From assembly GCF_013111185.1 (NCBI RefSeq), contig NZ_WVRE01000007.1, positions 1 through 64,000 on the forward strand: a stretch of 64,000 nucleotides of DNA, given 5' to 3'. The stretch is from Ruegeria sp. HKCCD7303. Its GTDB lineage: Bacteria > Pseudomonadota > Alphaproteobacteria > Rhodobacterales > Rhodobacteraceae. Shown piece by piece: positions 3,968-18,576 of this stretch (position 1 is its first letter; each line of letters opens with the position of its first letter). A model generated the notes under the pieces. The model searched no databases. It saw nothing but the letters and a program-made list of their open reading frames with translations, and was not told where the DNA came from. Both the position numbers and the translations under genes were made by a program.

Positions 3968-4693
3968 ATGCGCTCTGGTATTATCGCAAAAAAAGTTGGC
4001 ATGACCCGCCTGTTCATGGAAGACGGCAAGCAGATCCCTGTGACCGTTCTTCACCTGGACAACCTGCAGGTCGTTGCACAGCGTACCGCTGACAAAGACG
4101 GCTACACCGCCGTTCAGCTGGGCGCCGGTGCTGCCAAGGCAAAACGCACCTCGAAGGCCATGCGCGGCCACTACGCCGCTGCAAAGGTCGAGCCCAAGCG
4201 TAAGCTGGCCGAGTTCCGCGTCTCTGAAGATGGCCTGATCGAAGTGGGCGCCGAGATTTCGGCAGAACACTTCCTGGAAGGTCAGAAAGTTGACGTTTCG
4301 GGTACCTCGATCGGTAAAGGCTTTGCCGGTGCAATGAAGCGCCACAACTTTGGTGGTCTGCGCGCCTCGCACGGTGTTTCGATCAGCCACCGTTCGCACG
4401 GTTCGACCGGTCAGTGTCAGGATCCGGGCAAGGTGTTCAAAGGCAAGAAGATGGCCGGTCACATGGGTGCTGCCCGTGTAACCACCCAGAACCTGGAAGT
4501 TGTCAAAACCGACGCCGACCGGAACCTGGTCTTCATCAAAGGCGCCGTTCCCGGACCGAAATCGGGCTGGGTCACCGTCAAGGACGCCGTGAAGAAGAAA
4601 GCACCGGAAGGCCTGCCTTTCCCGGCTGCTGTGAAATCGGCTGCAACCGAAGCACCTGCGGAAGAAGCTCCCGCGGAAGGTGGTGAAGCATGA
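3968..4693 (+). CDS. rplC: 50S ribosomal protein L3
   Basis: 241-aa uL3, one of the first proteins to bind 23S rRNA, reaching toward the peptidyl transferase centre. The start [16 protein letters not shown] and the central [20 protein letters not shown] loop are characteristic. The C terminus has an alanine/glutamate-rich tail ([13 protein letters not shown]) of about 20 residues beyond the usual end, of a kind often seen in Rhodobacterales. A GGAGG site precedes the ATG. Its stop overlaps the start of rplD by four bases (ATGA). Confidence 0.98.
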
Positions 4694-5307
4694 AACTTGA
4701 TGTAATCAAACTGGACGGCGGCAAAGCCGGCGACATCGAGCTGAACGCCGATCTGTTCGGTCTCGAGCCGCGTGCGGACATCCTGCACCGTGTGGTCCGT
4801 TGGCAGCGTAACAACGCGCAGGCCGGCACCCACAAGGTCAAGACCCGCTCGGAAACCAGCTACTCGACCAAGAAGATCTATCGCCAGAAGGGCACCGGTG
4901 GCGCACGCCATGGTGACCGCAACGCGCCGATCTTCCGCAAGGGTGGTATCTACAAGGGCCCGACCCCTCGTTCGCACGGCCACGACCTGCCGAAGAAGTT
5001 CCGCAAGCTTGGCCTGCGCCACGCTCTGTCGGCAAAAGCCAAAGCAGGTGAACTGGTTGTGATCGAGAACGCCGAAGCCGAAGGCAAGACCGCTGCTCTG
5101 GCCAAACAGGTTGCAAACCTGGGCTGGAAACGCGCTCTGGTCATCGACGGCGCGACCGTGAACGAAGGGTTCCTGAAAGCGTCCAAGAACATCGAAGGTC
5201 TGGATATCCTGCCGTCGATGGGCGCAAACGTCTATGACATCCTCAAGCGTGACACCCTGGTGCTCACCAAAGCGGCTGTCGAAGCACTGGAGGCTCGTCT
5301 GAAATGA
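4690..5307 (+). CDS. rplD: 50S ribosomal protein L4
   Basis: 205-aa uL4 lining the polypeptide exit tunnel. The conserved loop is visible as [20 protein letters not shown] followed by [16 protein letters not shown], along with the family motif [20 protein letters not shown]. Overlaps of four bases with both rplC and rplW indicate translational coupling. It would be the regulator if the leader hairpin at 3541 is an L4-controlled attenuator, but this is only a parallel with enteric bacteria. Confidence 0.98.
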
Positions 5308-5600
5308 GCGCGAAGGCAGAACACTACGACGTGATCCGCAAGCCGATCATCACCGAAAAGTCGACCATGGCGTCCGAAAACGGCGCGGTTGTCTTTGAAG
5401 TGGCGATCGACAGCAACAAGCCGCAGATCAAAGAGGCCGTTGAGGCTCTGTTTGGTGTGAAGGTCAAGGCGGTGAACACCACCGTGACCAAAGGCAAGGT
5501 CAAGCGGTTCCGCGGCCAACTGGGCCGTCGGAAAGACGTCAAAAAAGCATATGTGACCCTGGAAGAGGGCAACACAATCGACGTGAGCACCGGTCTTTGA
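5304..5600 (+). CDS. rplW: 50S ribosomal protein L23
   Basis: 98-aa uL23, at the tunnel exit and the docking site for trigger factor and [21 protein letters not shown] at the N terminus and [20 protein letters not shown] at the C terminus are diagnostic. This is the intact copy. A diverged copy of its last 99 bases lies inverted at 17127-17225. In the usual order rplB comes next, but here rplB is ~9 kb away on the opposite strand, so this gene marks one edge of the inversion. Confidence 0.98.
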
Positions 5601-6229
5601 TCCGACGCTTACTGCGACTATTTACGGCCTCGGCGGATCAACCCGCCGAGGCCGATTTCGTTTCAGACCCTGAGATCACGCGTACACAAGTGCTGGAGAA
5701 AATGCGCGCGTTCAGCGCCGAACCGTATTTCCAGATTGCTGACGAGCAACTGGGGCTTTTGTCTGTTTTCGATGATTTGAAGTACGACCGGGCCGACGTA
5801 GACATGATCTCTCCGGCGATGCGTCGTCATGTGGTCGGCAAGCTTGGCCCATTGGGGTTCCGTCAGACCTCTGGTACGGTGCTTGAACACGCCGAGGCGG
5901 ACATGCGCGTACACATCCCCAAATTCCACGCCCTGGGCGCGTCGCCGTTTGACATTGCGCGCTACACAGACAAGCGCCCGCAAGATTACTGCCTGCTGAC
6001 CCCCACACAAGTTGCTTGCCAGTTCGTGGACCACTACGAGCTGGACGGTGCCGTGCAGCGGATCGAGTTGCTTGTTAAGAAACACCCGATCAACTTGCTG
6101 AAACTGGCTGACTATCTGGAAGGGAAACCCAAGCACCGCGCGTTTCGCGAAGTATTAGGATACATCAAGCGTCAGCAGCGGCTGGCTGTGGAATCCGAAC
6201 CTCTCTGCCGCAGGCGATCTTTAGGGTAG
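5597..6229 (+). CDS. Conserved-looking hypothetical protein behind rplW
   Basis: Up to 210 aa; family not recognised. A TTG at 5597 overlaps the rplW stop codon and would allow coupled translation. The first ATG is at 5701, with a close GGAG, and would give 176 aa. There is no signal peptide or membrane segment. The body is a mixed helical protein (for example [19 protein letters not shown] and [20 protein letters not shown]) with a basic end. Codon use looks like that of a real chromosomal gene. It is the last gene before the convergent DUF1127 gene and lies at the left edge of the inverted block, so its 3' end could have been altered by the rearrangement. Confidence 0.6.
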
Positions 6230-6448
6230 GGCCATGAGGTCGCTGAAGTTGGGGAGACACATTCCAGGCAGCTTATGAGGTGCCTGATGGCATTTGTCCT
6301 GCTTATGACAGTGCACCGGCTGCTCCTGTTGGGTGACAAACGACGCAGAGCCCGAATTTAGCGCCTTACAGCCGCTTTTCGACCTTCTCGAGAGATATGG
6401 GTCATCCGGCGCTGTCTGATCGCACTGTGGGCTTCTGGTTGAAACAGA

Positions 6449-6474
6449 AAAGGCGCCCTGTGGCGCCTTTGTGT
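6449..6474. terminator. Bidirectional terminator between convergent genes
   Basis: AAAGGCGCC, loop CTGT, GGCGCCTTT, followed by T-rich sequence on the plus strand and by TTTTC on the minus strand. It can end both the rpsJ operon read-through and the minus-strand DUF1127 gene. The rest of 6230-6495 holds no gene I can support. Confidence 0.7.
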
Positions 6475-6495
6475 TTTTGCTTCGGGTATCCGCGA

Positions 6496-6708
6496 TTATG
6501 AGCAATAAACGTGCTTGTGCGCGATGTCCGCGATATCACAGCGACGGACGCCGATGTCATCCAGCTCGCGGTTGGTCAGGTTTTGCAGTTCGCGGTAAGT
6601 GCGCTGATACTCAGCCGCACGGGCGCGCGCGGTTTTCATCCGTTCGATCATGTTTGCAATCCGGGCGCTGAAGCCGAAGCCGGAGTGTGTCAGTGTAGCA
6701 GTTGTCAT
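6496..6708 (-). CDS. DUF1127 small protein (YjiS-like)
   Basis: 70 aa. The C-terminal half, YRELQNLTNRELDDIGVRR with DIADIAHK, is the DUF1127 motif of small arginine-rich proteins. Some alphaproteobacterial members bind RNA and affect phosphate or carbon metabolism, but the role here is unknown. A GAAAGGA site lies six bases before the ATG. It follows the rpmD terminator on the same strand and is therefore probably its own transcript, ending at 6449. Confidence 0.85.
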   Translation of the reverse strand: MTTATLTHSGFGFSARIANMIERMKTARARAAEYQRTYRELQNLTNRELDDIGVRRCDIADIAHKHVYCS

Positions 6709-6728
6709 CTTCTTATTCCTTTCTCAAA

Positions 6729-6746
6729 TCAGGGCGTATTCCCTGA
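6729..6746 (-). promoter_or_regulatory. Hairpin in the 5' leader of the DUF1127 gene
   Basis: Perfect inverted repeat TCAGGG-CGTATT-CCCTGA lying ~20 bases before the start codon of the minus-strand DUF1127 gene. It could be an operator or a leader hairpin. The remaining part of 6747-6950 shows no gene I can support. Confidence 0.4.
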
Positions 6747-6951
6747 CGTTTCCTTTTTCGTGTTCCTTCATTGGACAAGCGTGAAATAGGGTTGAGAGGT
6801 ATCGCTAACAACCGAGTTTTCGGTCTACCGGCTATGCGTTTTCGGTATGTCCAACGTCAATCCTTGCGCCGAACGGATAGGAATAGTTTCATCGTTTCTC
6901 ATCCTTTTAACACAATGGATCAAAGCGACACGTCGGTTGCTGTTAAAGGCA

Positions 6952-6986
6952 AGAAAAAACGCCCCCGACCGAAGTCAGAGGCGTTC
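6952..6986 (-). terminator. Strong terminator of the rpmC-rpmD unit
   Basis: On the minus strand a 12-pair stem, AACGCCTCTGAC paired with GTCGGGGGCGTT, is capped by a TTCG tetraloop and followed by a run of T. It lies ~25 bases behind the rpmD stop. It shows that the spc-type transcript now ends after rpmD and does not run into rplO. Confidence 0.9.
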
Positions 6987-7011
6987 TTGGAAATTCTCGA
7001 AGGCTTCGCGC

Positions 7012-7200
7012 TTAGCCGCGTTCTTCGACGATCTCTACCAGATGCGGGATCTTGCGGATCATACCACGAACCGAAGGAGTATCTTCCAGCTCACGGGTTT
7101 TGTGCATCTTGTTGAGGCCCAGGCCGATCAGGGTTGCGCGCTGTTCGGCGGGGCGGCGGATCGGTGAACCGATCTGCTTGACGACGATGGTTTTTGCCAT
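7012..7200 (-). CDS. rpmD: 50S ribosomal protein L30
   Basis: 62-aa uL30. [20 protein letters not shown] followed by LIGLGLNKM is the family signature. It is the last ribosomal gene of the inverted block, 12 bases behind rpsE and followed by a strong terminator. In most bacteria rplO comes directly after rpmD; here rplO is at 18577 on the other strand. Confidence 0.97.
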
Positions 7201-7212
7201 GGGTCGCTCTCC

Positions 7213-7782
7213 TTATGCTTCTGCTTCAGCAGCAGCCGGTGCTTCGTCCCGCTTGGGCAGGATGTCAGCAACTTTTTTACCACGACGCGCGGCAACCGAA
7301 CGCGGACTCTGCTCTTTCTGCAGGCCGTTGATGGTGGCGCGGATCATGTTGTACGGGTTCTGCGAGCCCAGCGACTTGGACACAACGTCCTTAACGCCCA
7401 GCATTTCGAACACGGCACGCATCGGACCACCGGCGATGATACCAGTACCTTCAGGTGCGGTGCGCATAACCACTTTACCAGCGCCGTGACGGCCTTCGAT
7501 GTCGTGGTGCAGGGTCCGACCTTCGCGCAGCTGCACGCGGATCATTTGACGCTTGGCTTGTTCGGTCGCCTTACGGATGGCCTCAGGTACTTCTTTCGCT
7601 TTACCTTTGCCAAAGCCGACGCGGCCTTTCTGATCGCCGACAACCACCAGAGCGGCGAAGCCAAAGCGCTTACCACCTTTTACGGTTTTCGACACGCGGT
7701 TGATTGCGACCAGACGATCTGCAAATTCCGGTGCTTCTTCACGGTCGCGGCCACGGCCCCGACGGTTTTCACGTTCTGCCAT
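7213..7782 (-). CDS. rpsE: 30S ribosomal protein S5
   Basis: 189-aa uS5, needed for decoding accuracy at the 30S neck. [18 protein letters not shown] opens the N-terminal RNA-binding domain, and [15 protein letters not shown] begins the domain junction. The middle has [20 protein letters not shown]. An arginine-rich start ([16 protein letters not shown]) and an alanine/glutamate tail extend both ends, as in other alphaproteobacteria. The gap of 116 bases to rplR upstream is unusually wide for this operon. Confidence 0.97.
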
Positions 7783-7867
7783 TTGGCATCCCTTTTCTCA
7801 TGTGGCGCTTGTGACGCCGTTTGCTTCAATCCAAGTGAGCCCCGACTGTTGCCGAGGCCCCCGGATC

Positions 7868-7890
7868 ATCGGGGCAGCCACAAAGCTGCC
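7868..7890 (-). other. GC-rich hairpin in the rplR-rpsE spacer
   Basis: CCCCG paired with CGGGG around a short loop, without a T run, so it is not a standard terminator. It may stabilise or process the transcript between rplR and rpsE. Nothing else is visible in the 116-base spacer 7783-7898. Confidence 0.35.
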
Positions 7891-7898
7891 CGCAAGTC

Positions 7899-8258
7899 TT
7901 AGATCTTCAGACCACCTTCACGCGCAGCGTCGGCAACTGCCTTCACTTTGCCGTGGAACAGGAAGCCACCACGATCGAAATAGGCCTCTTCGACGCCTGC
8001 CTTCTTGGCACGCTCGGCGATGGCTGCGCCCACTTTGGTGGCCGCTTCGACGTTGTTCTTGCCAACAACACCCAGATCTTTTTCCAGGGTCGAGGCCGAC
8101 GCCAGGGTCACGCCACGAACGTCGTCGATCAGCTGAACGCTGATGTTTTTGTTCGAACGGTGAACCGACAGGCGTACACGGCCGGCGTTGACTTTGCGAA
8201 GTTTGTTCCGAACGCGCAGGCGGCGCTTCAGAAACAGGGTTCTTTTGCTGTTTGCCAT
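7899..8258 (-). CDS. rplR: 50S ribosomal protein L18
   Basis: 119-aa uL18, which carries 5S rRNA into the large subunit. The basic start ([18 protein letters not shown]), [18 protein letters not shown], and the end [20 protein letters not shown] followed by AREGGLKI are all family features. It lies 11 bases behind rplF. Confidence 0.97.
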
Positions 8259-8269
8259 TGTTTGCGTCC

Positions 8270-8803
8270 TTACTTCTTCTTGCCTTCCTTGCGGAAGATG
8301 AACTCGCCCTTATAGCGGATGCCCTTGCCTTTGTACGGCTCGGGACGGCGCCACTCGCGGATTTTGGCCGCGGTTTCGCCCACCAACTGCTGGTCGATAC
8401 CTTCCACAACGATTTCGGTCTGCTTCGGCGCGGTGATGGTGACACCTTCCGGAGCAGTGAAATCAACATCGTGGCTGTAGCCCAGGTTCAGTTTCAGGGT
8501 GTTGCCCTGCATCTGAGCCCGGTAACCGACACCCTGGATCTCCAGCTCTTTTTTGAAGCCTGTGGTCACACCGGTTACCAGGTTGGCAACCATGGTGCGG
8601 CTCATGCCCCACTGCTGGCGGGCACGCTTGGACATGCCACGGGGGTCGATCTTGACCACGTTGTCTTCAACCGACAGCGTTACGTCGTCGGTGGCGGTGA
8701 AGCTGCGGGTGCCTTTCGGACCTTTCACTTCGATGGTCTGGCCGGACACAGAGGCGGTAACGCCGCTGGGCAGCTCGACCGGTTTTTTACCAATACGAGA
8801 CAT
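8270..8803 (-). CDS. rplF: 50S ribosomal protein L6
   Basis: 177-aa uL6 with two similar domains. [14 protein letters not shown] starts the protein. The C-terminal block [20 protein letters not shown] is the classical L6 signature near the sarcin-ricin loop contact. It sits 11 bases behind rpsH, in regular spc order within the inverted block. Confidence 0.98.
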
Positions 8804-8814
8804 TGCAGACCTCC

Positions 8815-9207
8815 TTAGAAGACGGTGCAGAGCACTTCGCCGCCAACATTGTTGGAGCGAGCGTTTGCGTCCGACATCACACCTTTCGGAGTGCTGACAA
8901 TCGACACGCCCAGACCCTGACGGACCTGCGGGATGTCATTGACGCCCATGTAAACACGACGACCGGGCTTTGAGACCCGCTTCAGTTCGCGAATAACAGG
9001 GGTGCCTTCGTAGTACTTCAGGCTGATTTCGATGGCCGGATGACCGTTTTCGCCGGTCGTCTTTTCATAGCCACGGATGTAGCCTTCGTCCGCCAGCACA
9101 TCCAGAACCCAACCGCGCAGCTTGGAAGCCGGGGTGGAAACGGTGGATTTGCCGCGCAGTTGCGCGTTGCGGATACGGGTGAGCATATCGCCGATAGGAT
9201 CATTCAT
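8815..9207 (-). CDS. rpsH: 30S ribosomal protein S8
   Basis: 130-aa uS8. [20 protein letters not shown] at the start and the C-terminal [20 protein letters not shown] and GGEVLCTVF are diagnostic. S8 binds the central domain of 16S rRNA and, in Escherichia coli, represses its own spc mRNA; no leader target was examined here. It is 13 bases behind rpsN. Confidence 0.98.
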
Positions 9208-9220
9208 ATCTATGTCTCCC

Positions 9221-9526
9221 TTACCAGCTCGATTTCACCATGCCGGGGATCTGACCAGCAGAACCCAGCTCGCGCAGCGCGATACGGCTGACCTTCAGCT
9301 TACGGTAGTAAGCGTGGGGACGACCGGTCAGCTGACAACGGTTGTGCAGACGGGTAGCCGAGCTGTTGCGCGGCAGTTTCGCCAGTTTCAGACGCGCCTT
9401 GAAGCGCTCTTCCATCGGGCGGCTCTCGTCATTCGCGATTTCTTTCAGCTCGGCACGCTTTGCGGCATATTTGGCCACCAGGCGTTCGCGCTTCTTCTCG
9501 CGTTCGATCATTGCTTTTTTAGCCAT
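9221..9526 (-). CDS. rpsN: 30S ribosomal protein S14 (zinc-free form)
   Basis: 101-aa uS14. The long form without the two CxxC zinc pairs is seen; only one Cys (RCQLTGRP) remains. The conserved end is [20 protein letters not shown] followed by PGMVKSSW. It therefore does not depend on zinc supply. It is 19 bases behind rplE. Confidence 0.98.
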
Positions 9527-9545
9527 GTCTCAATCCTCCCGGCGC

Positions 9546-10106
9546 TTACGCGTTGAATGGCATGTTGAATGCTTTCAACAGGCTCTTCGCTTCAGCGTCG
9601 GTTTTCGCTGTGGTGGCAATTACGATATCCAAGCCCCAGACCTCGTCGACCTTGTCGAAGTCGATTTCCGGGAACACGATGTGCTCTTTCATGCCCATGG
9701 CAAAGTTGCCACGACCATCGAAAGACGGCTTAACACCGCGGAAGTCACGAACGCGCGGCAGCGCGATGGTGATCAGACGATCCAGGAATTCGTACATCCG
9801 GTCGCCGCGCAGGGTCACTTTTGCACCCAGCGGCATGTCTTCACGGACGCGGAAACCCGCGATCGACTTCTTCGCCTTTGTTGCAACGGCCTTTTGACCA
9901 GCAATCGCAGTCAGATCCTCGACAGCAGCTTTCGCTTTCTTCGAGTCTTTGACCGCCTCAGCACCACAACCGATGTTCAGAACGATTTTTTCCAGCTTGG
10001 GCAGCTGCATGTCGTTCTTATAGCCGAACTCTTCTTTCAGAGCGGCACGGATGGTTTCAACGTACTGAGCTTTCAGACGCGGGGTGTAGGTTGCGTTATC
10101 AAGCAT
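9546..10106 (-). CDS. rplE: 50S ribosomal protein L5
   Basis: 186-aa uL5, contacting 5S rRNA and the P-site tRNA. Characteristic stretches are [32 protein letters not shown] and [10 protein letters not shown]. The start codon lies inside the end of rplX with an eight-base overlap, implying coupled translation. Confidence 0.98.
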
Positions 10107-10410
10107 CGATCACGTCCCCTGTGGTCTTGGCGAAGCGGACCTTCTTGTCACCTTCCATGCGGAAGCCAACGCGGGTTGCTTTGCCGTTCTTGTCCAGCAG
10201 CGCCAGGTTCGACAGCTCGATCGGGTTTGCCTGAGGCAGGCGACCACCTTGCGAGGTTTGCGACTGACGGGTGTGGCGGATGGCGATGTTGATGCCATCG
10301 ACAACAGCTTTACCGGCTTTCGGGTCAACCGAGGAAATGGTTCCCTCTTTGCCCTTATCCTTGCCGGCCAGCACGACGACCTTGTCGCCTTTGCGGAGTT
10401 TAGCAGCCAT
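10099..10410 (-). CDS. rplX: 50S ribosomal protein L24
   Basis: 103-aa uL24, an assembly initiator. The N-terminal KOW motif is visible in [20 protein letters not shown], followed by the RNA-binding [11 protein letters not shown]. It is separated from rplN by two bases and overlaps rplE by eight. Confidence 0.98.
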
Positions 10411-10412
10411 GA

Positions 10413-10781
10413 TTACAGCACCTCCGGAGCCAGCGAGATGATTTTCATGAAGTTCTTGCCACGCAGTTCGCGAACAACGGGGCCAAAGATACGGGTACCT
10501 ACGGGCTCGTTGTTGTTGTTCAGGATGACGGCGGCGTTGCGATCAAAACGGATCGCGGTGCCGTCTTCGCGACGGACTTCTTTGGCGGTGCGTACGACGA
10601 CGGCCTTGCGGACGTCACCTTTCTTCACGCGGCCGCGCGGGATGGCTTCCTTCACCGAGACGACAATGATGTCGCCAACGGAGGCGTATTTACGCTTGGA
10701 ACCACCCAGGACCTTGATGCACTGAACTCGGCGTGCGCCGGAGTTGTCAGCAACATCCAGATTGGTCTGCATCTGGATCAT
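10413..10781 (-). CDS. rplN: 50S ribosomal protein L14
   Basis: 122-aa uL14, at the subunit interface and the docking place of the silencing factor Rsf[21 protein letters not shown] and the end of the chain ([20 protein letters not shown]) are characteristic. It lies 75 bases after rpsQ, a gap with no visible terminator. Confidence 0.98.
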
Positions 10782-10856
10782 GTGGTTTCTCCCGACCTGT
10801 GGGGGCTGGTCTTGTTAAATCCCCCAGGGTTTCGACAAATGAAAAATCCCGGAAGC

Positions 10857-11087
10857 TTATGCTTCCAGAACTTCCCAACGTTTCGTCTTCGATTTCGGCG
10901 CGCATTCGATGATGCGTACGGTGTCGCCGACCTTGAAGGCGTTCTTTTCGTCGTGAGCCCGGTATTTCTTGGACTTACGAACGGTTTTTTGCAGCAGCGG
11001 GTGCTTGAAGCGGCGTTCGACAGATACGGTTACGGTCTGTTCGTTGGCGTCGCTGGTCACGGTGCCTTGCAGGATACGCTTGGGCAT
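10857..11087 (-). CDS. rpsQ: 30S ribosomal protein S17
   Basis: 76-aa uS17, an early 16S rRNA binder. [20 protein letters not shown] opens an OB fold, and [20 protein letters not shown] is the family block. It sits four bases behind rpmC. Confidence 0.98.
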
Positions 11088-11091
11088 CTGA

Positions 11092-11298
11092 TTACTCCTC
11101 GGATGCCGCAGCAGCGGCCTTTTCGTTCAGAATGGTTTTGACGCGGGCAGCATTGCGGCGGGCCGCTTTGATACCAGCTGTATTTTCCAGCTGACCGGTT
11201 GCCTGTTGAAAGCGCAGGTTAAAGCTTTCTTTCTTCAGGTTGGCCAGTTCCTCGCGGAGCTGGTCCGGGGTCTTGTCACGCAGTTCTTGGGCGTTCAT
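11092..11298 (-). CDS. rpmC: 50S ribosomal protein L29
   Basis: 68-aa uL29, a two-helix protein near the tunnel exit. [20 protein letters not shown] and [18 protein letters not shown] are typical. An AAGGAAAAAG site precedes the ATG. It is first in the second unit of the inverted block, with its own promoter at 11418, because non-ribosomal genes and a terminator separate it from rplP. Confidence 0.97.
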
Positions 11299-11417
11299 CG
11301 CCTTTTTCCTTTGCTCAAAACACCAGAAGGCCCCCTTGCAGGGTCACCTTGGACCTGGTGGATGAATGATAGACATGCGAATCCCCCGACTCGGCCGGGG
11401 GACTTGCAGGATGCCGC

Positions 11418-11446
11418 CGTATAAGGGTTTAGGGGGTGGGTGGCAA
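11418..11446 (-). promoter_or_regulatory. Probable promoter of the rpmC-rpmD unit
   Basis: On the minus strand TTGCCA, exactly 17 bases, then TATACG, ~120 bases before rpmC. The two boxes are identical to those before rplO (18453-18481), and the -35 box equals that before rpsJ. A stem TCCCCCG/CGGGGGA at 11383-11403 lies in the leader. Confidence 0.65.
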
Positions 11447-11493
11447 GAGGAAGTTTCTAAAGGAAGAACATCCGCAAAAAATACACACGATCC

Positions 11494-11916
11494 TTACATT
11501 AAACCGAGGTTTCGAACGATTGTGGCACTGTCATAATAGTCGCGCCCTTCGACAACCATACCGTTCTTTACGCGCATTACAGAACAGTAGCGTACTTCGT
11601 ATCGCTTACCCGTAGGTTCAAATTCTCCCAAACTGGAATGCAGGATACCAGTATGCGTACCGGTATTGTGAAACTCTACAATGGCCCACTCGCCACAATC
11701 GCTCACGATGACATTGTCAACGATACACTCCCCATCTGGAAATGCTTTTCGCCAACGCGCATAGTCTTCTTTATACGCGAGCTTTCCTATTTGCCTTTCA
11801 CCACGGGCTACATCCTCAAACTTACAGTCATCAGAAATAACCTGCGCGCCACGTTCAGGGTCGCGCATGCCCCAGCTTTCGTGAAATTGGCGTACAACAC
11901 GCTCTGCTTCTCTCAT
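11494..11916 (-). CDS. SnoaL/NTF2-like protein
   Basis: 140 aa. The pattern VRQFHESWGMRDPERGAQVI, then ARWRKAFPDGECIVDNVIV, AIVEFHNTGTHTG and RYCSVMRVKNGMVVEGRDYY is that of the SnoaL-like ester cyclase branch of the NTF2 fold. Such proteins bind small molecules; the ligand is unknown. The ATG at 11916 is chosen for its GAGGAG site. That site lies in one arm of a 12-pair inverted repeat (11919-11950). The gene interrupts the ribosomal order between rplP and rpmC, and its more AT-rich sequence suggests later arrival. Confidence 0.8.
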   Translation of the reverse strand: MREAERVVRQFHESWGMRDPERGAQVISDDCKFEDVARGERQIGKLAYKEDYARWRKAFPDGECIVDNVIVSDCGEWAIVEFHNTGTHTGILHSSLGEFEPTGKRYEVRYCSVMRVKNGMVVEGRDYYDSATIVRNLGLM

Positions 11917-11918
11917 TA

Positions 11919-11950
11919 CCGTTACTCCTCTATTAATGAGAGAGTAACGG
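11919..11950 (-). promoter_or_regulatory. Hairpin that can hide the ribosome site of the SnoaL-like gene
   Basis: In the minus-strand mRNA CCGUUACUCUCU pairs with AGAGGAGUAACGG (one bulged G) around a CAUUAAU loop, two bases before the AUG. The ribosome-binding GAGGAG lies within the 3' arm. The geometry suits an RNA thermometer, a protein-bound translational operator, or a DNA operator palindrome. There is no T run, so it is not a terminator. Confidence 0.6.
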
Positions 11951-12024
11951 CTGTAATTGAGATTGGCTTGTCCTAGTTTACCAGACCCCACAGAGTTCTA
12001 AGAGAACCCCTAACAGAGTGCACG

Positions 12025-12645
12025 CTACTCCCACTTGTAGTTGAAGCTGACGCTAATCCGTTCGTCCTCGGCCATGTTCATCGGCACCTCGTGGCGCAGC
12101 CAGCTTTCCCACAGTAGGACATCCCCTACCTGTGGCTTCATATAAATGAACGGCTGCAATTCCCGCCGACCACCTTTGAGACGCGTCGGCGCTGCCATCA
12201 TGCGGCCTGAGCGCGGATCTTCCAGTTTCAACGCGCTCGCCCCTTCGGGCATCGCCACATAGGTCGTGCCAGAAATTACGCTGTGCGGGTGCAGGTGGCT
12301 GGAGTGCATACCACCTTCGGGCAGGATGTTGATCCACAGATCCTCCAGCTTCAGCTCTCCTTCACCAAGATCAAACTCCAGATCCTTGGCAAAGGCCGCC
12401 ACGTGTTGATCCAGCACTTTCACCAGATCGGCAAAGATCGGGAACCGCCAGGGCAGATCCGTCAGCGAGGCATAGCTGGTATAGCCGGGATAGCCATTCT
12501 CTTCACACCAATCCTGTCCGGCCTCGTCATCTTCCGCGATAACAAGGCAAGAGTTTTCAAGCTCCTCCGAGTCTATTTTGGGATCAAACTCGGACAAAGC
12601 TGCGCGATAGAGACGGGTAACGAAAAGTGATTCAATCTGTGCCAT
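12025..12645 (-). CDS. Putative 2OG-Fe(II) oxygenase (TIGR02466 type) beside rplP
   Basis: 206 aa. The iron-site motif is visible as HSSHLHPHSVISGTTYV (His117/His119/His121 region). A distal His185 lies in WLRHEVPMN, and Arg196 lies in ERISVSFNYKW, where it is expected to hold 2-oxoglutarate. This fits the PF13759/TIGR02466 group of putative 2-oxoglutarate and iron dependent oxygenases. The substrate is unknown. Its place directly downstream of the L16 gene suggests, as inference only, a ribosomal protein as substrate; Escherichia coli L16 is hydroxylated on an arginine by the unrelated oxygenase YcfD (RoxA). Confidence 0.8.
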   Translation of the reverse strand: MAQIESLFVTRLYRAALSEFDPKIDSEELENSCLVIAEDDEAGQDWCEENGYPGYTSYASLTDLPWRFPIFADLVKVLDQHVAAFAKDLEFDLGEGELKLEDLWINILPEGGMHSSHLHPHSVISGTTYVAMPEGASALKLEDPRSGRMMAAPTRLKGGRRELQPFIYMKPQVGDVLLWESWLRHEVPMNMAEDERISVSFNYKWE

Positions 12646-12691
12646 GCGTCCTGTCTTAGACCAGTGATGCGGGGAAGGCGATGGCGGAAAT

Positions 12692-12764
12692 GCGAGGCTC
12701 TGCCTCGCGCTCCGAGGTATTTTTGGCCAGATGAAAAATGGATTCCTGCTTCATCTGGCTAAAA
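12692..12764. repeat. Intergenic palindromic unit of Rhodobacterales type
   Basis: Two nested palindromes: GCGAGGC-TCT-GCCTCGC (12692-12708) and GCCAGATGAA paired with TTCATCTGGC (12726-12759), flanked by TTTT on the left and AAAA on the right. I recall the sequence around TATTTTTGGCCAGATGAA as a frequent intergenic motif in Rhodobacteraceae. It can act as a bidirectional terminator. Confidence 0.55.
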
Positions 12765-12812
12765 CTACCCCGGGGGAGGCGTGGCTTGCCGCGGCGGGGG
12801 CAGCGCCCCCAA

Positions 12813-12846
12813 CATAAAACCCCCGCCGGTGTCCCGACGGGGGTCA
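12813..12846 (-). terminator. Terminator behind rplP
   Basis: On the minus strand GACCCCCGTCGG, loop ACA, CCGGCGGGGGTTTT, ~35 bases after the rplP stop. It shows that the rplB-rplP transcript ends here and explains the separate promoter before rpmC. Confidence 0.8.
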
Positions 12847-12880
12847 ATCTTTTTGCGAACTGGGCCTTAGCCCCAATCGC

Positions 12881-13294
12881 TTACCAGTCTTCGCGAACCA
12901 CGACGCGGGTCTTGATCGGCAGCTTCATCGCGGCCAGGCGCAGGGCCTCGCGGGCGATGTCGTCATTGACACCGTCGATCTCGAACATCACGCGACCAGG
13001 CTTGACCTTGCAAACCCAGCGGTCCACCGAACCCTTACCTTTACCCATACGAACTTCGATCGGCTTTGCAGTGACCGGAGTGTCGGGGAAGATACGGATC
13101 CAGACACGACCCTGACGTTTCATGTGACGGGTCATGGCACGACGTGCAGCTTCGATCTGACGCGCGGTGACGCGTTCAGGCTGCAGAGCTTTCAGACCGT
13201 AAGTGCCAAAGTTCAGATCAGAGCCGCCTTTGGCTTCACCCTTGATCCGGCCTTTGTGCATCTTGCGGAATTTTGTACGCTTTGGTTGAAGCAT
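12881..13294 (-). CDS. rplP: 50S ribosomal protein L16
   Basis: 137-aa uL16, near the A-site tRNA elbow. [40 protein letters not shown] and [20 protein letters not shown] are diagnostic. The Arg-containing loop hydroxylated in E. coli L16 is in the conserved RMGKGKG region. It lies 12 bases after rpsC, and an intrinsic terminator follows. Confidence 0.98.
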
Positions 13295-13306
13295 CTCAAT
13301 TCCCCC

Positions 13307-14014
13307 TTAGCGACGGCCGCCTGCACCGCGAGGTGCCGGACCATCCTGGAGTTCCTGTGCTTTACGGTCACGTGCCTGCGGATCGTGCTCCATGATCTCA
13401 CCTTTGAAGATCCAGACCTTGATCCCGATGATCCCGTAAGGGGTCATCGCTTCGGCATGTGCGTAATCGATGTCGGCACGCAGGGTGTGCAGAGGCACGC
13501 GGCCTTCGCGGTACCACTCGGTCCGTGCGATTTCGGCACCACCCAGACGACCAGCGACGTTCACCCGGATACCCAGGGCGCCCATGCGCATGGCGTTCTG
13601 AACGGCACGTTTCATCGCGCGGCGGAACGAGACACGGCGTTCCAGCTGCTGAGCGATCGACTCGGCAACCAGTTGACCGTCGAGTTCCGGCTTGCGCACT
13701 TCGACGATGTTCAGGTGCAGTTCGCTGTCGGTCATCTTGGCCAGCTTCTTGCGCAAAACTTCGATGTCTGCACCCTTCTTGCCGATGATGACACCCGGAC
13801 GTGCGGTGTGGATCGTGACGCGGCACTTCTTGTGCGGACGTTCGATGATCACACGTGCAACACCGGCCTGCTTGCACTCTTTGTTGATGAACTCACGGAT
13901 CTTGATGTCTTCCAGCAGAAGATCACCGTAGTCCTTGGTATCAGCGTACCAACGGCTGTCCCAGGTGCGGTTGACCTGAAGGCGCATGCCGATCGGATTG
14001 ACTTTATGTCCCAT
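13307..14014 (-). CDS. rpsC: 30S ribosomal protein S3
   Basis: 235-aa uS3 at the mRNA entry. The KH domain core is [19 protein letters not shown]. The C-terminal domain shows [20 protein letters not shown] and [15 protein letters not shown] short basic/glycine tail ends the protein. Its first base is also the last base of the rplV stop. Confidence 0.98.
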
Positions 14015-14394
14015 TAGGCTTGCTCCTCAACTTGACGCACCTTGATGGTGATCTCCGAGAACGGCTTCATGATCTTGCCGAAACGGCCACGGGCGCGCGG
14101 ACGACCGCGCTTCATGACCAGGTTCTTGCCAACCCATGCTTCGGCGACGATCAGCTCGTCAACGTCCAGGTTGTGGTTGTTTTCGGCATTCGCGATTGCG
14201 GACTGCAGGCACTTCTTGACGTCCTGCGCGACACGCTTGTTCGAGAAAGTCAGGTCGGTCAGAGCCTTCTCAACTTTCTTGCCGCGGATCATTTGCGCAA
14301 CCAGGTTCAGTTTCTGCGGGCTGGTGCGAAGCATGCGCGTTTTCGCCATTGCTTCGTTTTCAGCCACGCGGCGGGGGTTCTTTTCCTTGCCCAT
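14014..14394 (-). CDS. rplV: 50S ribosomal protein L22
   Basis: 126-aa uL22, whose long loop lines the exit tunnel and is a macrolide contact. Seen in [20 protein letters not shown] near the N terminus and [20 protein letters not shown] in the tunnel loop. It is three bases behind rpsS. Confidence 0.98.
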
Positions 14395-14397
14395 GAC

Positions 14398-14676
14398 TTA
14401 CTTCCGCTTCGCTTTTTTGTCTGCGGCATGGCCATAATAGGTACGGGTCGGCGAGTATTCACCGAACTTCTGACCAATCATGTCTTCCGAGACGTTGACG
14501 GGAATGTGCTTCTGGCCGTTGTACACACCAAAGGTCAGACCCACGAACTGGGGCAGAATGGTGGAACGACGCGACCAGATTTTGATGACTTCGTTGCGGC
14601 CCGACTCGCGCGCTGCTTCGGCTTTTTTCAGCACGTAAGCATCGACGAAAGGACCCTTCCAAACAGAGCGAGACAT
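14398..14676 (-). CDS. rpsS: 30S ribosomal protein S19
   Basis: 92-aa uS19 of the 30S head. [39 protein letters not shown] and [20 protein letters not shown]-like sequence (here [20 protein letters not shown]) identify it. Three bases separate it from rplB and from rplV. Confidence 0.98.
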
Positions 14677-14679
14677 AGA

Positions 14680-15522
14680 TTAACGTCCCTTCTTCTTGGC
14701 GTGCCGCGAGCGGATGATCAGCTTCTGGGACGCTTTGTTCTTGTTGCGGGTACGCTTACCCTTGGTGTCCTTACCCCACGGCGTAACCGGTGTACGGCCA
14801 CCCGAGGTACGACCTTCACCACCACCGTGCGGGTGATCGATCGGGTTCATTGCAACACCACGAACCGACGGACGCACGCCTTTGTGGCGCATACGACCGG
14901 CTTTACCGAGGTTTTGGTTCGAGTTGTCGGGGTTGGACACGGCACCGACGGTGGCCATGCATTCCTGACGGACCATGCGCAGCTCGCCCGAGCTCAGACG
15001 GATCTGAGCGTAGCCGCCATCGCGACCAACGAACTGAGCGTAAGTACCGGCCGCACGTGCGATCTGACCGCCTTTGCCAGGCTTCATCTCGATGTTGTGG
15101 ACGATGGTACCAATGGGCATGCCCGAGAACGGCATTGCGTTGCCCGGCTTGATGTCGGCCTTGGCGGATGCCACGACTTTGTCACCAACAGCCAGACGTT
15201 GCGGAGCCAGGATATATGCCTGCTCGCCGTCTTCGTATTTTACCAGTGCGATGAATGCGGTCCGGTTCGGGTCATATTCGATCCGCTCGACGGTTGCCGC
15301 GACATCAAATTTGTTCCGTTTGAAGTCAACGATCCGGTAGAGACGCTTTGCGCCACCGCCGCGGCGGCGTGAAGTGATCCGTCCGGTGTTGTTCCGGCCG
15401 CCCGATTTGGTCAAACCCTCAGTGAGAGACTTGACCGGACGTCCTTTCCAAAGCTCCGAACGGTCGATCAGCACCAGCCCGCGCTGGCCCGGCGTCGTCG
15501 GCTTGTACGACTTGAGTGCCAT
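14680..15522 (-). CDS. rplB: 50S ribosomal protein L2
   Basis: 280-aa uL2, needed for subunit joining and peptidyl transfer. [15 protein letters not shown] is the standard start, chosen at 15522 with a GGAAG site although the frame is open further upstream. The C-terminal [14 protein letters not shown] contains the conserved functional histidine. It heads the inverted block. Normally it is read from the rplW transcript, so here it must rely on another promoter. Confidence 0.97.
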
Positions 15523-15692
15523 GCTTTCTGTCTTCCGTTTAGCAAGTGCAGGGGTTTTCCCTGCTATGTGATAGGCCCCCGTAGGTGCCAAGGGTATAGG
15601 GCCCCGAAGGTCCCCGGTTACAAATATCAGAGGCCCCGGAACGAATCCGAGGCCGCAAGATTGGGTGCGTTTAGCAGTGTTGGCGGTGGGTG

Positions 15693-15720
15693 TCTATAGG
15701 GAATTACTTGCGTTCTGCAA
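15693..15720 (-). promoter_or_regulatory. Candidate promoter for the rplB unit
   Basis: On the minus strand TTGCAG, 16 bases, TATAGA, ~170 bases before rplB. The match is weaker than for the other ribosomal promoters here. The gap 15523-15997 otherwise holds the rplB leader (with GC-rich pairings near 15590-15650) and the control region of the toxin-antitoxin pair; no gene is seen. Confidence 0.35.
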
Positions 15721-15886
15721 TGCTGAGAAAGGTAGTTTACGAACGGCCAGCCAACTTGCACGCATAAGTTTTTCGATGCTACGCGCAAATCCCAATGGCT
15801 AGGCCAAATCGCTATCTGTAAAGAACTTTTGAATGCATCGCACCACAATTTAAACACATTTTTTACTTGATACTGTCAGAAAGTTG

Positions 15887-15929
15887 TTGCGAATATTGCG
15901 AATAGATCCATATAAATACACAACGGTGT
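15887..15929 (+). promoter_or_regulatory. Candidate promoter and operator of the toxin-antitoxin pair
   Basis: TTGCGA, 17 bases, ATATAA, preceded by tandem copies of TTGCGAATA. An inverted repeat ACAC-AACG-GTGT lies at 15918-15929, where an autoregulating antitoxin could bind. Confidence 0.45.
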
Positions 15930-15997
15930 GTGGAAAACTACCGAGCCCAGACAAGTAACTCTATCGAACCAACATATACAATAAGAGAGAACACGCT

Positions 15998-16465
15998 ATG
16001 AATGCCGCGTTAAATGCGCCGGCCTTTGACGAACGCTTGCCAACTGAGTTGGAAAGCACAAACGCCGAGACGCTTAGACAAATCGTCGCCTCGCAAATCA
16101 AGGAGGACGGCGAAACAGTAATAAACATATCTAATGTCGAGGGTGAGACGCAGCCAATCACGCTCTCGCCCGCACTTGCGCACTCTTTTTTAGAGTTGTT
16201 GCGGCTAGTTAGCAGTGGTCGAGGCTTCCAACTGATTCCACTGGATAGTCAACTGACCACGCAACAAGCAGCTGATATACTGAACGTTTCACGCCCTCAT
16301 CTAATCAAATTGCTTGAAAGAGATGAAATCCCCTTTGATCGCGTTGGGAGACATAGGCGCATCAAAGCAAGCGACTTGATGGCATACAAAGACAAACGTG
16401 ACACTGAGCGTGCTGACGCTCTTGCAGACCTTGCGGAATTTGACGGAGAGCACGGCCTACTTTGA
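15998..16465 (+). CDS. Antitoxin with excisionase-type helix-turn-helix
   Basis: 155 aa. The C-terminal half contains TTQQAADILNVSRPHLIKLL followed by IPFDRVGRHRRIKASDLMAY, the winged helix of the excisionase/HTH_17 family. The N-terminal half is likely the dimerising or toxin-binding part. Proteins of this form are known partners of PIN_3 toxins. The start has ATG at 15998 with an AGAGAGAA-type site. The stop overlaps the TTG start of the toxin. The pair is more AT-rich than its ribosomal neighbours, fitting acquisition. Confidence 0.8.
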   Translation: MNAALNAPAFDERLPTELESTNAETLRQIVASQIKEDGETVINISNVEGETQPITLSPALAHSFLELLRLVSSGRGFQLIPLDSQLTTQQAADILNVSRPHLIKLLERDEIPFDRVGRHRRIKASDLMAYKDKRDTERADALADLAEFDGEHGLL

Positions 16466-17178
16466 ACTATCAAGCTGACCGCTTCACGGCGCTGGCTGAC
16501 GCTTGCGTGTTATCCAGCGCCCTTAAGCGAAATATTTTACTTTCCTTTGCCCAAGCTGAATTTTATCGCGTTCGATGGTCTAACAAGATCATGGATGAGA
16601 CTGAACGAACTATAGTGAAGCTGCTTCAACGCAAAGAAATCGCCGAACCCGATAAGGGTGCGAAACGCCAGCGCAGTAATATGTGCCGAGCGTTTGAGGA
16701 AGCTATGGTCGAGGATTTCGAGGTTCTTGAACCTTCACTAGATGGCATTAACGAGAAAGATCGGCACGTTCTTGCAGCGGCAATTAAGACCTGCGCATCG
16801 GTTATCGTGACCGACAATCTGAAAGATTTCCCGCCGGAATATTGCGCGCCATTTGATATAGAGCCACTGTCGGCAGATAGCTTTTTTGCCGACTGCATTT
16901 CATTGTCACCATCAGAAACCATGGCGACACTCAGAAGAATGCGCGAACGTCTCAAAAACCCTGAAATCACACCGGAAAAACTTGTTACACTCTGCGAGGG
17001 TGAAGCGATGCTAAAGACTGCTTCACTAATCCACGAATACAAGGCTGCCTTGCAAAACTGTTCAGACGACCGGTACAAAAAAACCGCTTTCGCGGGGTCT
17101 TTAACTCTCTCCAAGGACGGGTCCGATCAGCGACCGGAGGACACGGCGATGGAGCTGCCCTTTTCCAGGGTCACATAG
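16462..17178 (+). CDS. PIN-domain toxin (VapC-like ribonuclease)
   Basis: 238 aa as read. Acidic PIN residues are seen in ADACVLSSAL (Asp), KIMDETERT (Glu) and VIVTDNLKDFP (Asp pair), with NEKDRHVLAAAI between. A C-terminal helical part follows (PSETMATLRRMRERLKNPEI). No ATG is available; a TTG overlapping the antitoxin stop gives MNYQADRF. The last ~35 codons are antisense to an intrinsic terminator (17076-17097) and to the rplW remnant, so the natural C terminus was probably lost and this tail is read-through. Function may persist, since the PIN core is complete. Confidence 0.75.
   Translation: MNYQADRFTALADACVLSSALKRNILLSFAQAEFYRVRWSNKIMDETERTIVKLLQRKEIAEPDKGAKRQRSNMCRAFEEAMVEDFEVLEPSLDGINEKDRHVLAAAIKTCASVIVTDNLKDFPPEYCAPFDIEPLSADSFFADCISLSPSETMATLRRMRERLKNPEITPEKLVTLCEGEAMLKTASLIHEYKAALQNCSDDRYKKTAFAGSLTLSKDGSDQRPEDTAMELPFSRVT
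17076..17098 (-). terminator. Terminator behind the rplW remnant
   Basis: On the minus strand CCGC, GAAA loop, GCGG, then seven T. It ends the desaturase/rplW-remnant transcript, and its DNA is inside the 3' part of the opposing toxin frame. Confidence 0.75.
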
Positions 17179-17225
17179 GATTTCTTGGCGTCTTTCCGAC
17201 GAACCAGCTGGCCACGGAACCCCTC
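17127..17225 (-). pseudogene. rplW: Remnant of the rplW 3' end (ribosomal protein L23)
   Basis: The minus strand reads FRGQLVRRKDAKKSYVTLEK, then GSSIAVSSGR and a stop, which aligns without gaps to the last 32 residues of the intact L23 at 5502-5600. By hand about 79 of 99 bases agree, with runs such as tatgtgaccctggaa identical. Many changes are silent or conservative, as between orthologs of related species. The first two thirds of the gene are absent. The desaturase gene abuts and overlaps its left end by a few bases. A short in-frame ATG (17231) could start a 34-aa peptide, but a working L23 is impossible. Confidence 0.92.
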
Positions 17226-18258
17226 ACCCATAAAGCGCCCTCGCCTCGGCGAAGGACAGCAGGCGGCGGCTTTGCTCATCCCACAGATGCAGCCGTGCGT
17301 TGGCGAGGCTTTCGCGGATGGTCATCCGGTTGCTGTTGGCCAGCTCATCATGATCGCGCAGCACTTCGGGCAGGCGATAAAAGGGAATACGGCTGTAGAG
17401 GTGATGCACGTGGTGGATGCCGATATTGGCGGTGAACCACTGCAAGACCGACGGCAATATATAATGAGAGCTTCCGTGCAGCGCCGCTTCGTGCAGCTGC
17501 CAGTTCTCATCCGACTCCCAATGTGTGTCCTCGAACTGGTGCTGCACGTAGAACAGCCATACTCCGGCGGCTGCGGCAATCAGGGTTGAGGGCAGGAAGA
17601 TCAGCAGCATCGGCATCAGGCCGCCAAAATAATAGACCGTCAGTAATATGGCCAGAATGGCGACATTGGTGGCCATGGCGCTGACCCAGAACCTGACGCT
17701 GTCGGTCAGGCCCAAGGGTAGGCGGTTCTGAAACAGAAACAGATAGCCGGGGCCAAACACGAACAGGGTGATCGGATTCCGATAGACGCGATACCAGAAC
17801 CGGTTCATTGGCGTTTTGGCTTGATACTCGGCCACAGTCAGGGTGTGGATATCGCCCATCCCGCGCTTGCCCAGATTGCCCGAGCTGTTGTGATGCGTGG
17901 AATGCGTGCGACGCCAGACATCATAAGGTGTCAGGGTCAGAACGCCGATTCCGCGCCCGATCCAGTCACTGACCGTCCGGTTCTTGAAGAACGCGCCGTG
18001 TCCGCAATCATGCTGGATGGCAAAAAGGCGCAGCAGAAAGGCCGCATTGAGCACGGAAATCGCAAAGGCCAGCCAATAGCTGACAGACAGCGACATCCAG
18101 GACAACGCCCAAAGCGCGAAGAAGGGAACAATGCTGACGCCCAACTCGAACGTGCTTCGCAGTTGGTCCGGTTCGCGATATTTGGCAAGCGTTGTTACCC
18201 AGTCACGTGCGGCGGTTGTCTCCGGCTTGTCCCGAAGCGAGTGAGAAGGGTGAGTCAT
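17224..18258 (-). CDS. Membrane fatty acid desaturase
   Basis: 344-aa acyl-lipid desaturase (PF00487). All three histidine boxes are present: HDCGHG, HSTHH and HHVHHL, which hold the di-iron centre. Hydrophobic pairs of membrane helices lie around residues 45-95 and 180-225. It probably introduces a double bond into membrane lipid acyl chains, using an electron donor not encoded here. The start MTHPSHSLRDKPE at 18258 is chosen over an upstream in-frame ATG at 18330. Its stop codon lies inside the junction with the rplW remnant. Co-transcription with the remnant to the terminator at 17076 is likely. Confidence 0.9.
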   Translation of the reverse strand: MTHPSHSLRDKPETTAARDWVTTLAKYREPDQLRSTFELGVSIVPFFALWALSWMSLSVSYWLAFAISVLNAAFLLRLFAIQHDCGHGAFFKNRTVSDWIGRGIGVLTLTPYDVWRRTHSTHHNSSGNLGKRGMGDIHTLTVAEYQAKTPMNRFWYRVYRNPITLFVFGPGYLFLFQNRLPLGLTDSVRFWVSAMATNVAILAILLTVYYFGGLMPMLLIFLPSTLIAAAAGVWLFYVQHQFEDTHWESDENWQLHEAALHGSSHYILPSVLQWFTANIGIHHVHHLYSRIPFYRLPEVLRDHDELANSNRMTIRESLANARLHLWDEQSRRLLSFAEARALYG

Positions 18259-18452
18259 GCGCCTGCCAGTCTGGTGTTTACAGGCATCCCGATAGACTAC
18301 CACTTCGGTATGGCAAGGGGTTTCTGCCAAAGTTGGTGGAATTCGTGCTCAAATAACGGTTAGAAACCGGCGAGGTCGCCCTTTTGGGAGCAGTTTACAG
18401 TCTGGTTCGGGTACCTTTGACTGCGCCGCAGAGCGGACGGCAATCTACAGAC

Positions 18453-18481: not shown

Positions 18482-18576
18482 CCTGCGGTGGCTTTCCGCC
18501 ATGAGAATCAAAACCAAGAAATGCCGTGTTTGGCCCATCACGCTTCGGGGGTCATATCCGGCTTAGGAGAAGCGAA

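What the first reader, a model, noticed from the sequence alone, without database searches (positions are those of the whole stretch)
5502..17225. Ribosomal block rplB-rpmD is inverted between two opposed rplW ends
Seen directly: rpsJ-rplC-rplD-rplW on plus, rplB to rpmD on minus, rplO-secY-adk on plus. The bacterial norm is one direction throughout. The last 99 bases of rplW (5502-5600) recur as a diverged inverted copy (17127-17225, ~79/99 bases alike by hand). Flipping the DNA between them restores rplW followed by rplB, and rpmD on the side of rplO. The inverted gene ends thus look like the footprints of the rearrangement. An assembly error is possible but unlikely, since both junctions carry extra genes and diverged copies.
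Basis: partly seen in the sequence, partly recalled or inferred. Interest (0 to 1): 0.85.

Follow-up and report, generated by a model that had tools for sequence, protein, structure and literature searches.

The report
Flipped ribosomal gene block in Ruegeria
In this marine bacterium and seven related species a block of sixteen ribosomal-protein genes runs backwards inside the normally one-directional ribosomal gene cluster, and where it could be checked it runs against the direction of DNA copying; the flip is real and probably old, but the repeated gene end noticed beside it looks like a relic of an earlier insertion and not the hinge of the flip.

Summary
In detail: rpsJ-rplC-rplD-rplW on +, rpmD to rplB on -, rplO-secY on +, and a 79% inverted copy of the rplW end at 17114-17224. 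The genus is Ruegeria. The flip is no assembly error and not private to one genome: 8 of 54 species have it.

The flipped piece is larger: DUF1127, rpmD-rplB, a toxin-antitoxin-like pair, rplW' and a desaturase gene. Breakpoints lie at about 6230-6495 and 18331-18576. The diverged rplW end is a relic of an older insertion: 31 of 54 genomes carry 1-4 such tails, 46 of 48 comparable ones on the rplB strand, and 10 non-inverted genomes have the same desaturase-rplW' pair.

Most likely this is one old inversion inherited in a sub-clade, tolerable because the cluster is split into modules, with a known L2 leader before rplB and a possible promoter before rplO. In five of the eight genomes GC skew or dnaA position shows the block head-on to replication; three were not tested. 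Gene trees conflict (alaS for one clade; rpoB, valS and rplC-rplW against), so spread between species stays possible. New variant of a known kind.

The parts
3635..5600 (+). module A: rpsJ-rplC-rplD-rplW
   Evidence: ORFs; same order in the genus
5597..6229 (+). cargo gene ORF210, no Pfam match
   Evidence: lies behind rplW in several non-inverted relatives too
6230..6495 (.). left breakpoint interval, with a two-way terminator-like hairpin at 6449-6470
6496..6708 (-). DUF1127 gene; in non-inverted relatives on the rplO side, same strand as rplO (37 of 37 tested)
   Evidence: Pfam PF06568, maps
7012..11298 (-). module C, inverted, 11 genes: rpmD-rpsE-rplR-rplF-rpsH-rpsN-rplE-rplX-rplN-rpsQ-rpmC
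11494..12645 (-). cargo of zone 2: SnoaL-like protein and 2OG-Fe(II) oxygenase
   Evidence: a cluster of 2OG reading frames spans 47 genomes
12881..15519 (-). module B, inverted, 5 genes: rplP-rpsC-rplV-rpsS-rplB
15525..15590 (-). L2-Alphaproteobacteria ribosomal leader RF03142 in front of rplB
   Evidence: 65.9 bits, gathering 37.8, E 5e-14
15998..17178 (+). HTH_17 gene and PIN-domain gene, a likely toxin-antitoxin pair; matched over more than half their length in this genome only of 54
   Evidence: PIN_3 is just below its Pfam cut-off (26.5 against 27 bits). Only the cluster regions were searched, not whole genomes
17114..17224 (-). rplW': displaced 3' end of a rplW gene, directly behind the desaturase stop
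17224..18330 (-). fatty-acid desaturase gene; downstream of rplW in non-inverted relatives that have it
   Evidence: Pfam PF00487, maps. A start at about 18258 is also possible (read)
18331..18576 (.). right breakpoint interval with a possible rplO promoter (TTGCCA, 17 nt, TATACG at 18453-18481, read by eye)
   Evidence: the consensus scan did not list it
18577..20524 (+). module D: rplO-secY (adk follows)

Best explanation
The S10-spc cluster of Ruegeria is split into modules: A (rpsJ-rplW), B (rplB-rplP), C (rpmC-rpmD) and D (rplO-secY...). They are separated by three zones of variable cargo genes. An inversion with one breakpoint in zone 1 (between ORF210 and the desaturase) and one in zone 3 (between DUF1127 and rplO) turned the desaturase, B, C and DUF1127 around as one piece. 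It was tolerable because rplB starts with its own L2 leader and rplO probably with its own promoter. The arrangement was most likely inherited from the common ancestor of eight species; in three of these the D module later moved away. The rplW' tail is a relic of an earlier capture of DNA at the rplW end and was carried along passively. Shown: gene order, right junction, leader, head-on direction in five of eight genomes, relics in other genomes. Inferred: single origin, vertical descent, tolerance through separate promoters. Not known: what cut and joined the ends.
For: Maps of 54 congeners: block opposite to rplW in 8 (G000, G001, G026, G028, G029, G070, G071, G073). Desaturase and DUF1127 are exchanged between the two ends as a flip at the named breakpoints demands: desaturase beside rplO, opposite strand, in 7 of 7 inverted genomes that have it; DUF1127 next to rplW, opposite strand, in 8 of 8; desaturase downstream of rplW in 22 of 22 non-inverted ones. 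Right junction alike, spacing 240-292 nt, in the 7; likeness of the left junction was judged by eye. alaS, an unlinked gene, puts all 8 in one clade, 100/100 (20 of 54 genomes); in it the three genomes with a displaced rplO module (G070, G028, G071) are a clade, 100/100. rplB-rplP tree with 12 outgroups: seven of eight in one clade, 100/99. Fourfold skew of rplB-rplP is the same in inverted and other genomes (-0.154, -0.155). RF03142 leader. Head-on: GC skew of G001, G070 and the window flanks; dnaA positions for G028 and G071.
Against: One clade of the inverted genomes is rejected by rpoB (54 genomes: p 0.0009 for eight, 0.012 for seven; in the same 20 genomes as alaS p 2e-56 for seven), by valS (30 of 54, seven inverted: p 0.0005) and by module A (49 genomes: p 3e-50 for eight, 1e-5 for seven). 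polA does not decide (30 of 54, six inverted, p 0.38). Module C groups them only in part, module D as two groups. rplB-rplP without outgroups leaves them unresolved. G073 lacks the desaturase and lies outside the seven in the rooted tree. Between the junctions no repeat clearly above shuffled background was found, so the joining mechanism is unknown. The 12 normal genomes for alaS were chosen by me; the 30 for polA and valS are those most like G001.
Confidence: 0.7

Rival explanations
1. The inverted block arose once and then spread between species by recombination of incoming DNA with modules A and D.
For: rpoB, valS and module A reject a single clade while rplB-rplP unites seven of eight, nested among normal genomes. 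G028 keeps the rplB leader and first codons beside rplW (182 of 200 identical to its functional leader; of 52 leaders compared its own ranks only 34th), followed by a rplW tail with the start of ORF210 that is not its own type (80 of 110 to G001, score 84 against a shuffled maximum of 36; own tail no better than shuffled).
Against: alaS puts all eight in one clade, the displaced rplO module follows that clade, and polA does not reject it. The foreign-type tail in G028 is found in non-inverted genomes as well (81 of 115 to G004), so it does not point to an inverted donor; the joint can equally be a normal-type rplW region captured beside a resident inverted block.
Confidence: 0.2
2. The two rplW ends are the arms of the inversion: recombination between them flipped the DNA in between.
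For: They are in inverted orientation, 111 nt, 79% alike.
Against: The desaturase outside those arms has flipped as well. The same desaturase-rplW' pair is in direct orientation in 10 non-inverted genomes. G001, G071 and G073 are inverted and have no detectable rplW'.
Confidence: 0.04
3. Assembly error or chimera.
For: Draft genome of 23 contigs.
Against: Same order in other assemblies, among them contigs of 3.2-3.7 Mb (G001, G028, G070, G071), and a homologous right junction.
Confidence: 0.01
4. Several independent inversions at the same weak points.
For: Other breaks use the same zones: module B alone is flipped in G068, the B-C block lies about 150 kb away in G036, module C is flipped in L199. 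G073 has a different right junction.
Against: Seven genomes share the right junction by sequence.
Confidence: 0.05

Closest known systems
[quoted passage not shown] passages and section 19 seen)
   Same: Genes first invade the gap between operons, later breaks separate the operons; duplication with loss, transposons or transfer from relatives are proposed as causes.
   Different: Here the gaps lie inside the S10 and spc operons (rplW/rplB, rplP/rpmC, rpmD/rplO), a central block is turned head-on, and the state is shared by eight species. The word Alphaproteobacteria does not occur in that main text.
L2 ribosomal leader of Alphaproteobacteria, RF03142 (PMC7247131, table passage seen)
   Same: The leader is listed for rplB, rpsS, rplV, rpsC and makes rplB the start of a regulated unit.
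   Different: The passages seen say nothing about movable modules; the table marks the motif with a question mark.
Gene inversions to head-on direction (PMC6220195, start of abstract in a listing only)
   Same: Genes turned against replication, recognised by GC skew.
   Different: Here a block of highly conserved ribosomal genes is turned; fourfold skew of the genes themselves shows no trace.
Unusual S10-spc-alpha organisation in Leptospira (PMC2481283, start of abstract in a listing only)
   Same: An altered S10-spc-alpha locus shared across a genus.
   Different: Not compared in detail; the abstract's start stresses conservation across Leptospira, whereas here the order varies within the genus.
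Integrase attachment at gene 3' ends (recalled, no source read)
   Same: Repeated gene 3' ends mark insertions behind a housekeeping gene.
   Different: No integrase appeared among the families displayed for 131 cargo proteins, and the left ends of the tails vary between cargo types.

Membership tests
Inversion by recombination between inverted repeats | Repeat arms lie exactly at both junctions | tested here: not met
   rplW' lies inside the flipped piece; similarity between the two junctions was at most near the 95% mark of shuffles, in different genomes and directions
Inversion by recombination between inverted repeats | Arms present in all inverted genomes | tested here: not met
   G001, G071 and G073 have no detectable rplW tail
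Phase-variable invertible element | Both orientations in one strain, recombinase next to it | not testable with these tools
   No reads; no recombinase among the nine window proteins scanned
Integrative element / cassette array at an attachment site | Integrase encoded in the inserts | tested here: inconclusive
   None among the 25 of 92 Pfam and 25 of 81 PHROG families displayed for 131 of 138 listed cargo frames; the integrases displayed for the genus lie outside the cluster, but that list was cut
Integrative element / cassette array at an attachment site | One fixed crossover point | tested here: not met
   40 of 46 tails begin at positions 45-75 of the last 150 nt, clustered but not fixed
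L2-Alphaproteobacteria leader | Covariance model above gathering score, directly before rplB | tested here: met
   65.9 against 37.8 bits, 15525-15590 (-)
Highly expressed genes co-directional with replication | Ribosomal block on the leading strand | tested here: not met
   Window flanks have GC skew +0.045 and +0.037, block on -; G001 and G070 likewise by skew, G028 and G071 by dnaA position. G026, G029, G073 not tested

The most novel reading that the evidence does not exclude
The rplW 3' end of Ruegeria is a capture site. Incoming DNA from relatives joins by homology on the side of rplC-rplW and end-to-end on the other side, near rplW codon 65-75. Each event lays down a new cargo gene and strands the old rplW tail with its terminator behind it. 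The cluster thereby grows cargo arrays, breaks into movable modules, and can turn ribosomal genes head-on and move them.
Probability: 0.35. Interest if true: 0.75.

Novelty: new variant of a known kind. Interest (0 to 1): 0.6.

Why it matters
The S10-spc cluster is a textbook case of fixed gene order and of co-direction with replication. Here is a genus in which its joints are open, one block runs against replication in several species, and sister species offer the normal order as a natural control. That makes the cost of head-on ribosomal genes, and the steps by which operon clusters fall apart, directly testable in culturable bacteria.

Tried and rejected
Horizontal spread as main explanation: I held this after the rpoB and rplB-rplP trees and demoted it when alaS put all eight inverted species together. 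polA did not decide; valS spoke against one clade.

Convergent base composition of head-on genes as cause of the grouping in rplB-rplP: fourfold GC skew -0.154 (8 inverted) against -0.155 (45 others), module C -0.169 against -0.179; rejected.

Inverted repeats at the true junctions: none clearly above shuffled background (single values near or just above the 95% mark, in different genomes and both directions).

A fixed attachment site or integrase for the rplW tails: not supported, not excluded.

A conserved promoter before rplO: my pattern, written after seeing the sequences, fits 21 of 54 upstream regions against 0.05 expected in shuffles; 33 miss, three inverted genomes among them. The consensus scanner did not list it. 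Suggestive only.

rplB-rplP trees without outgroups left the inverted genomes in an unresolved spot (holding them together raised the likelihood by 13.5 for eight and 14.8 for seven, p 0.64 and 0.61). In the 20-genome subset the seven were not one side of a branch, though not rejected (p 0.36). The rooted tree united seven.

Distances between genomes did not separate the models clearly and are not used.

Plasmid search with 5300-6300 gave 8 records with 60-80% identity over at most 28% of the query.
Full report
WHAT IS THERE. The window is the start of contig 21 of a 4.62-Mb draft genome. The rplW end at 5503-5613 has an inverted, 79% complementary copy at 17114-17224.

THE NORM OF THE GENUS. 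I took the cluster from all 54 genomes that the genus search returned and mapped it with the window's proteins. The usual order is rpsJ-rplC-rplD-rplW, zone 1, rplB-rpsS-rplV-rpsC-rplP, zone 2, rpmC...rpmD, zone 3, rplO-secY. The zones hold variable cargo: medians 2694 nt (39 loci), 2478 nt (50) and 2335 nt (42) where the flanking genes share a strand. The desaturase and ORF210 are cargo of zone 1, the 2OG oxygenase of zone 2, DUF1127 of zone 3. In some drafts a zone is cut by a contig end (G014, G027, G031, G034, G065).

THE INVERSION. In 8 of 54 genomes (G000, G001, G026, G028, G029, G070, G071, G073) the block from rplB to rpmD, sixteen ribosomal genes, is opposite to rplW. In 7 of 7 of these that have it, the desaturase lies beside rplO on the opposite strand; in 22 of 22 non-inverted genomes that have it, it lies downstream of rplW on the same strand. 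DUF1127 is next to rplW, opposite strand, in 8 of 8 inverted genomes and on the rplO strand near rplO in 37 of 37 non-inverted ones tested. The breakpoints are therefore between ORF210 and DUF1127 (6230-6495) and between desaturase and rplO (18331-18576). The right junction is alike in the seven genomes with the desaturase, spacing 240-292 nt. Three of the eight (G028, G070, G071) have the rplO module far away, still with the desaturase beside it.

THE rplW TAIL IS NOT THE HINGE. A profile of intact rplW tails finds 50 extra tails in 31 of 54 genomes (46 at E up to 1e-6, in 29 genomes), 1 to 4 per genome; 46 of the 48 that can be compared lie on the strand of rplB, the two others in G028 and G068. 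Many keep stop codon and terminator (by eye). The desaturase is followed by such a tail within 200 nt in 12 of 29 loci, 10 of them non-inverted. In the window the tail stands directly at the desaturase stop. So the pair existed in direct orientation without any flip, and in the window it was most likely carried along. Three inverted genomes have no tail. Tails begin at positions 45-75 of the last 150 nt in 40 of 46 cases. Partial copies of other cluster genes are fewer: 2OG pieces in five loci, single pieces of rplP, rplR and ORF210, and remnants of leaders.

HOW TAILS MAY ARISE. G028 keeps, beside rplW, the rplB leader and first codons (182 of 200 identical to its functional leader; of 52 leaders compared its own ranks only 34th). 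Directly behind follow 110 nt that match the rplW tail plus ORF210 start of G001 (80 of 110, score 84, shuffled maximum 36) and, nearly as well, of non-inverted genomes such as G004 (81 of 115); they match G028's own rplW tail no better than shuffled sequence. Two different rplW regions thus met there. I read this as capture of incoming DNA with one free end; which side was resident is not settled. G025 has a weaker leader remnant (144 of 181).

HISTORY. rpoB rejects one clade of the inverted genomes (p 0.0009 for eight, 0.012 for seven; 54 genomes); module A does too (p 3e-50 for eight, 1e-5 for seven; 49 genomes), and valS (p 0.0005; 30 of 54 genomes, 7 inverted). polA does not (p 0.38; 30 of 54, 6 inverted). 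The rplB-rplP tree with 12 outgroups unites seven of eight at 100/99, nested among normal genomes, G073 outside. alaS, far from the cluster, unites all eight at 100/100 (20 of 54 genomes, normals chosen by me), and in it the three genomes with displaced rplO are a clade; in the same 20 genomes rpoB rejects the seven at p 2e-56. rplO-secY shows two all-inverted groups of the same make-up as in alaS, G073 apart. Fourfold skew speaks against a composition artefact. I conclude: most likely one old inversion in a sub-clade, with much exchange of core genes between species; spread of the block itself remains possible.

WHY IT IS TOLERATED. Infernal finds the L2-Alphaproteobacteria leader directly before rplB (65.9 bits, gathering 37.8), a leader listed for rplB, rpsS, rplV, rpsC (PMC7247131, table passage). 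It moved with the block. Before rplO a stretch looks like a promoter (TTGCCA-17-TATACG, by eye); the tests of it are weak. ORF210 and DUF1127 converge on a two-way terminator-like hairpin. That separate promoters make the flip harmless is inference.

DIRECTION AGAINST REPLICATION. In G001, GC skew is positive in the nine samples from 0 to 1.48 Mb and negative in the eleven from 1.64 to 3.48 Mb (some within error), with dnaA at the start of the contig. The cluster at 2.96 Mb has rplW and rplO on the leading strand and the block against it. G070 gives the same result by skew, with noise near its origin. dnaA positions give it for G028 and G071, and for module B alone in G068. In the window the flanks at 24-44 and 44-64 kb have skew +0.045 and +0.037, so the inverted block is head-on. 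G026, G029 and G073 were not tested.

BEYOND THE GENUS. 295 family genomes were searched; both gene lists were cut, and 101 genomes appear in both (matched by eye). 90 keep one strand within 20 kb, 7 have the genes on different contigs (drafts), 4 are rearranged on one contig, two of these being Ruegeria and the other two 0.14-0.2 Mb apart. Among 80 named loci the split layout is common in Roseobacter relatives and nearly closed in small pelagic genomes. L199 has module C flipped; L133, L138, L142, L149 and L161 show no rplW within 10 kb upstream of rplB. rplW tails also occur in Marimonas (L172) and Ascidiaceihabitans (L192).

LITERATURE. Judged by titles and starts of abstracts, the papers listed include none on an inverted S10-spc block in Roseobacter; two searches returned nothing. 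Most subscription papers are not in the library. Brandis 2021 (PMC8046335; passages and section 19) describes insertions between operons followed by separation, in other lineages.

Noticed in passing
window 15998-17178: HTH_17 plus PIN-domain pair found in the cluster of this genome only of 54; the last part of the PIN reading frame runs antisense through the rplW tail.
   Followed up: partly
L114 (G068): Module rplB-rplP alone is flipped between rplW and rpmC, head-on by dnaA position; the rplR match is also split in two overlapping pieces.
   Followed up: partly
L103, L104 (G036): rplB-rpmD block lies about 150 kb from rplW-rplO, which are joined with desaturase and DUF1127 between them.
   Followed up: no
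L087 (G025): rplB stands divergent in front of rpsJ; the contig ends in what looks like an EF-Tu gene (by eye), so a tuf-tuf exchange may be involved.
   Followed up: no
L199, L133, L138, L142, L149, L161: Other Rhodobacteraceae with module C flipped (L199) or no rplW within 10 kb upstream of rplB.
   Followed up: no
L082 8572-8828 and L083 9410-9539: Remnants of rplP and of the rpmC leader inside zone 2.
   Followed up: partly
window 21322-21399: Alpha-operon leader RF00140 below its gathering score (29.5 against 38 bits), upstream of and overlapping the start of rpsM.
   Followed up: no
window 51245-52450: Reading frame that looks like a phage-type integrase (by eye, not scanned).
   Followed up: no
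genus trees: rpoB, valS, alaS and cluster genes give conflicting trees with strong support: core genes seem to recombine widely among Ruegeria species.
   Followed up: partly
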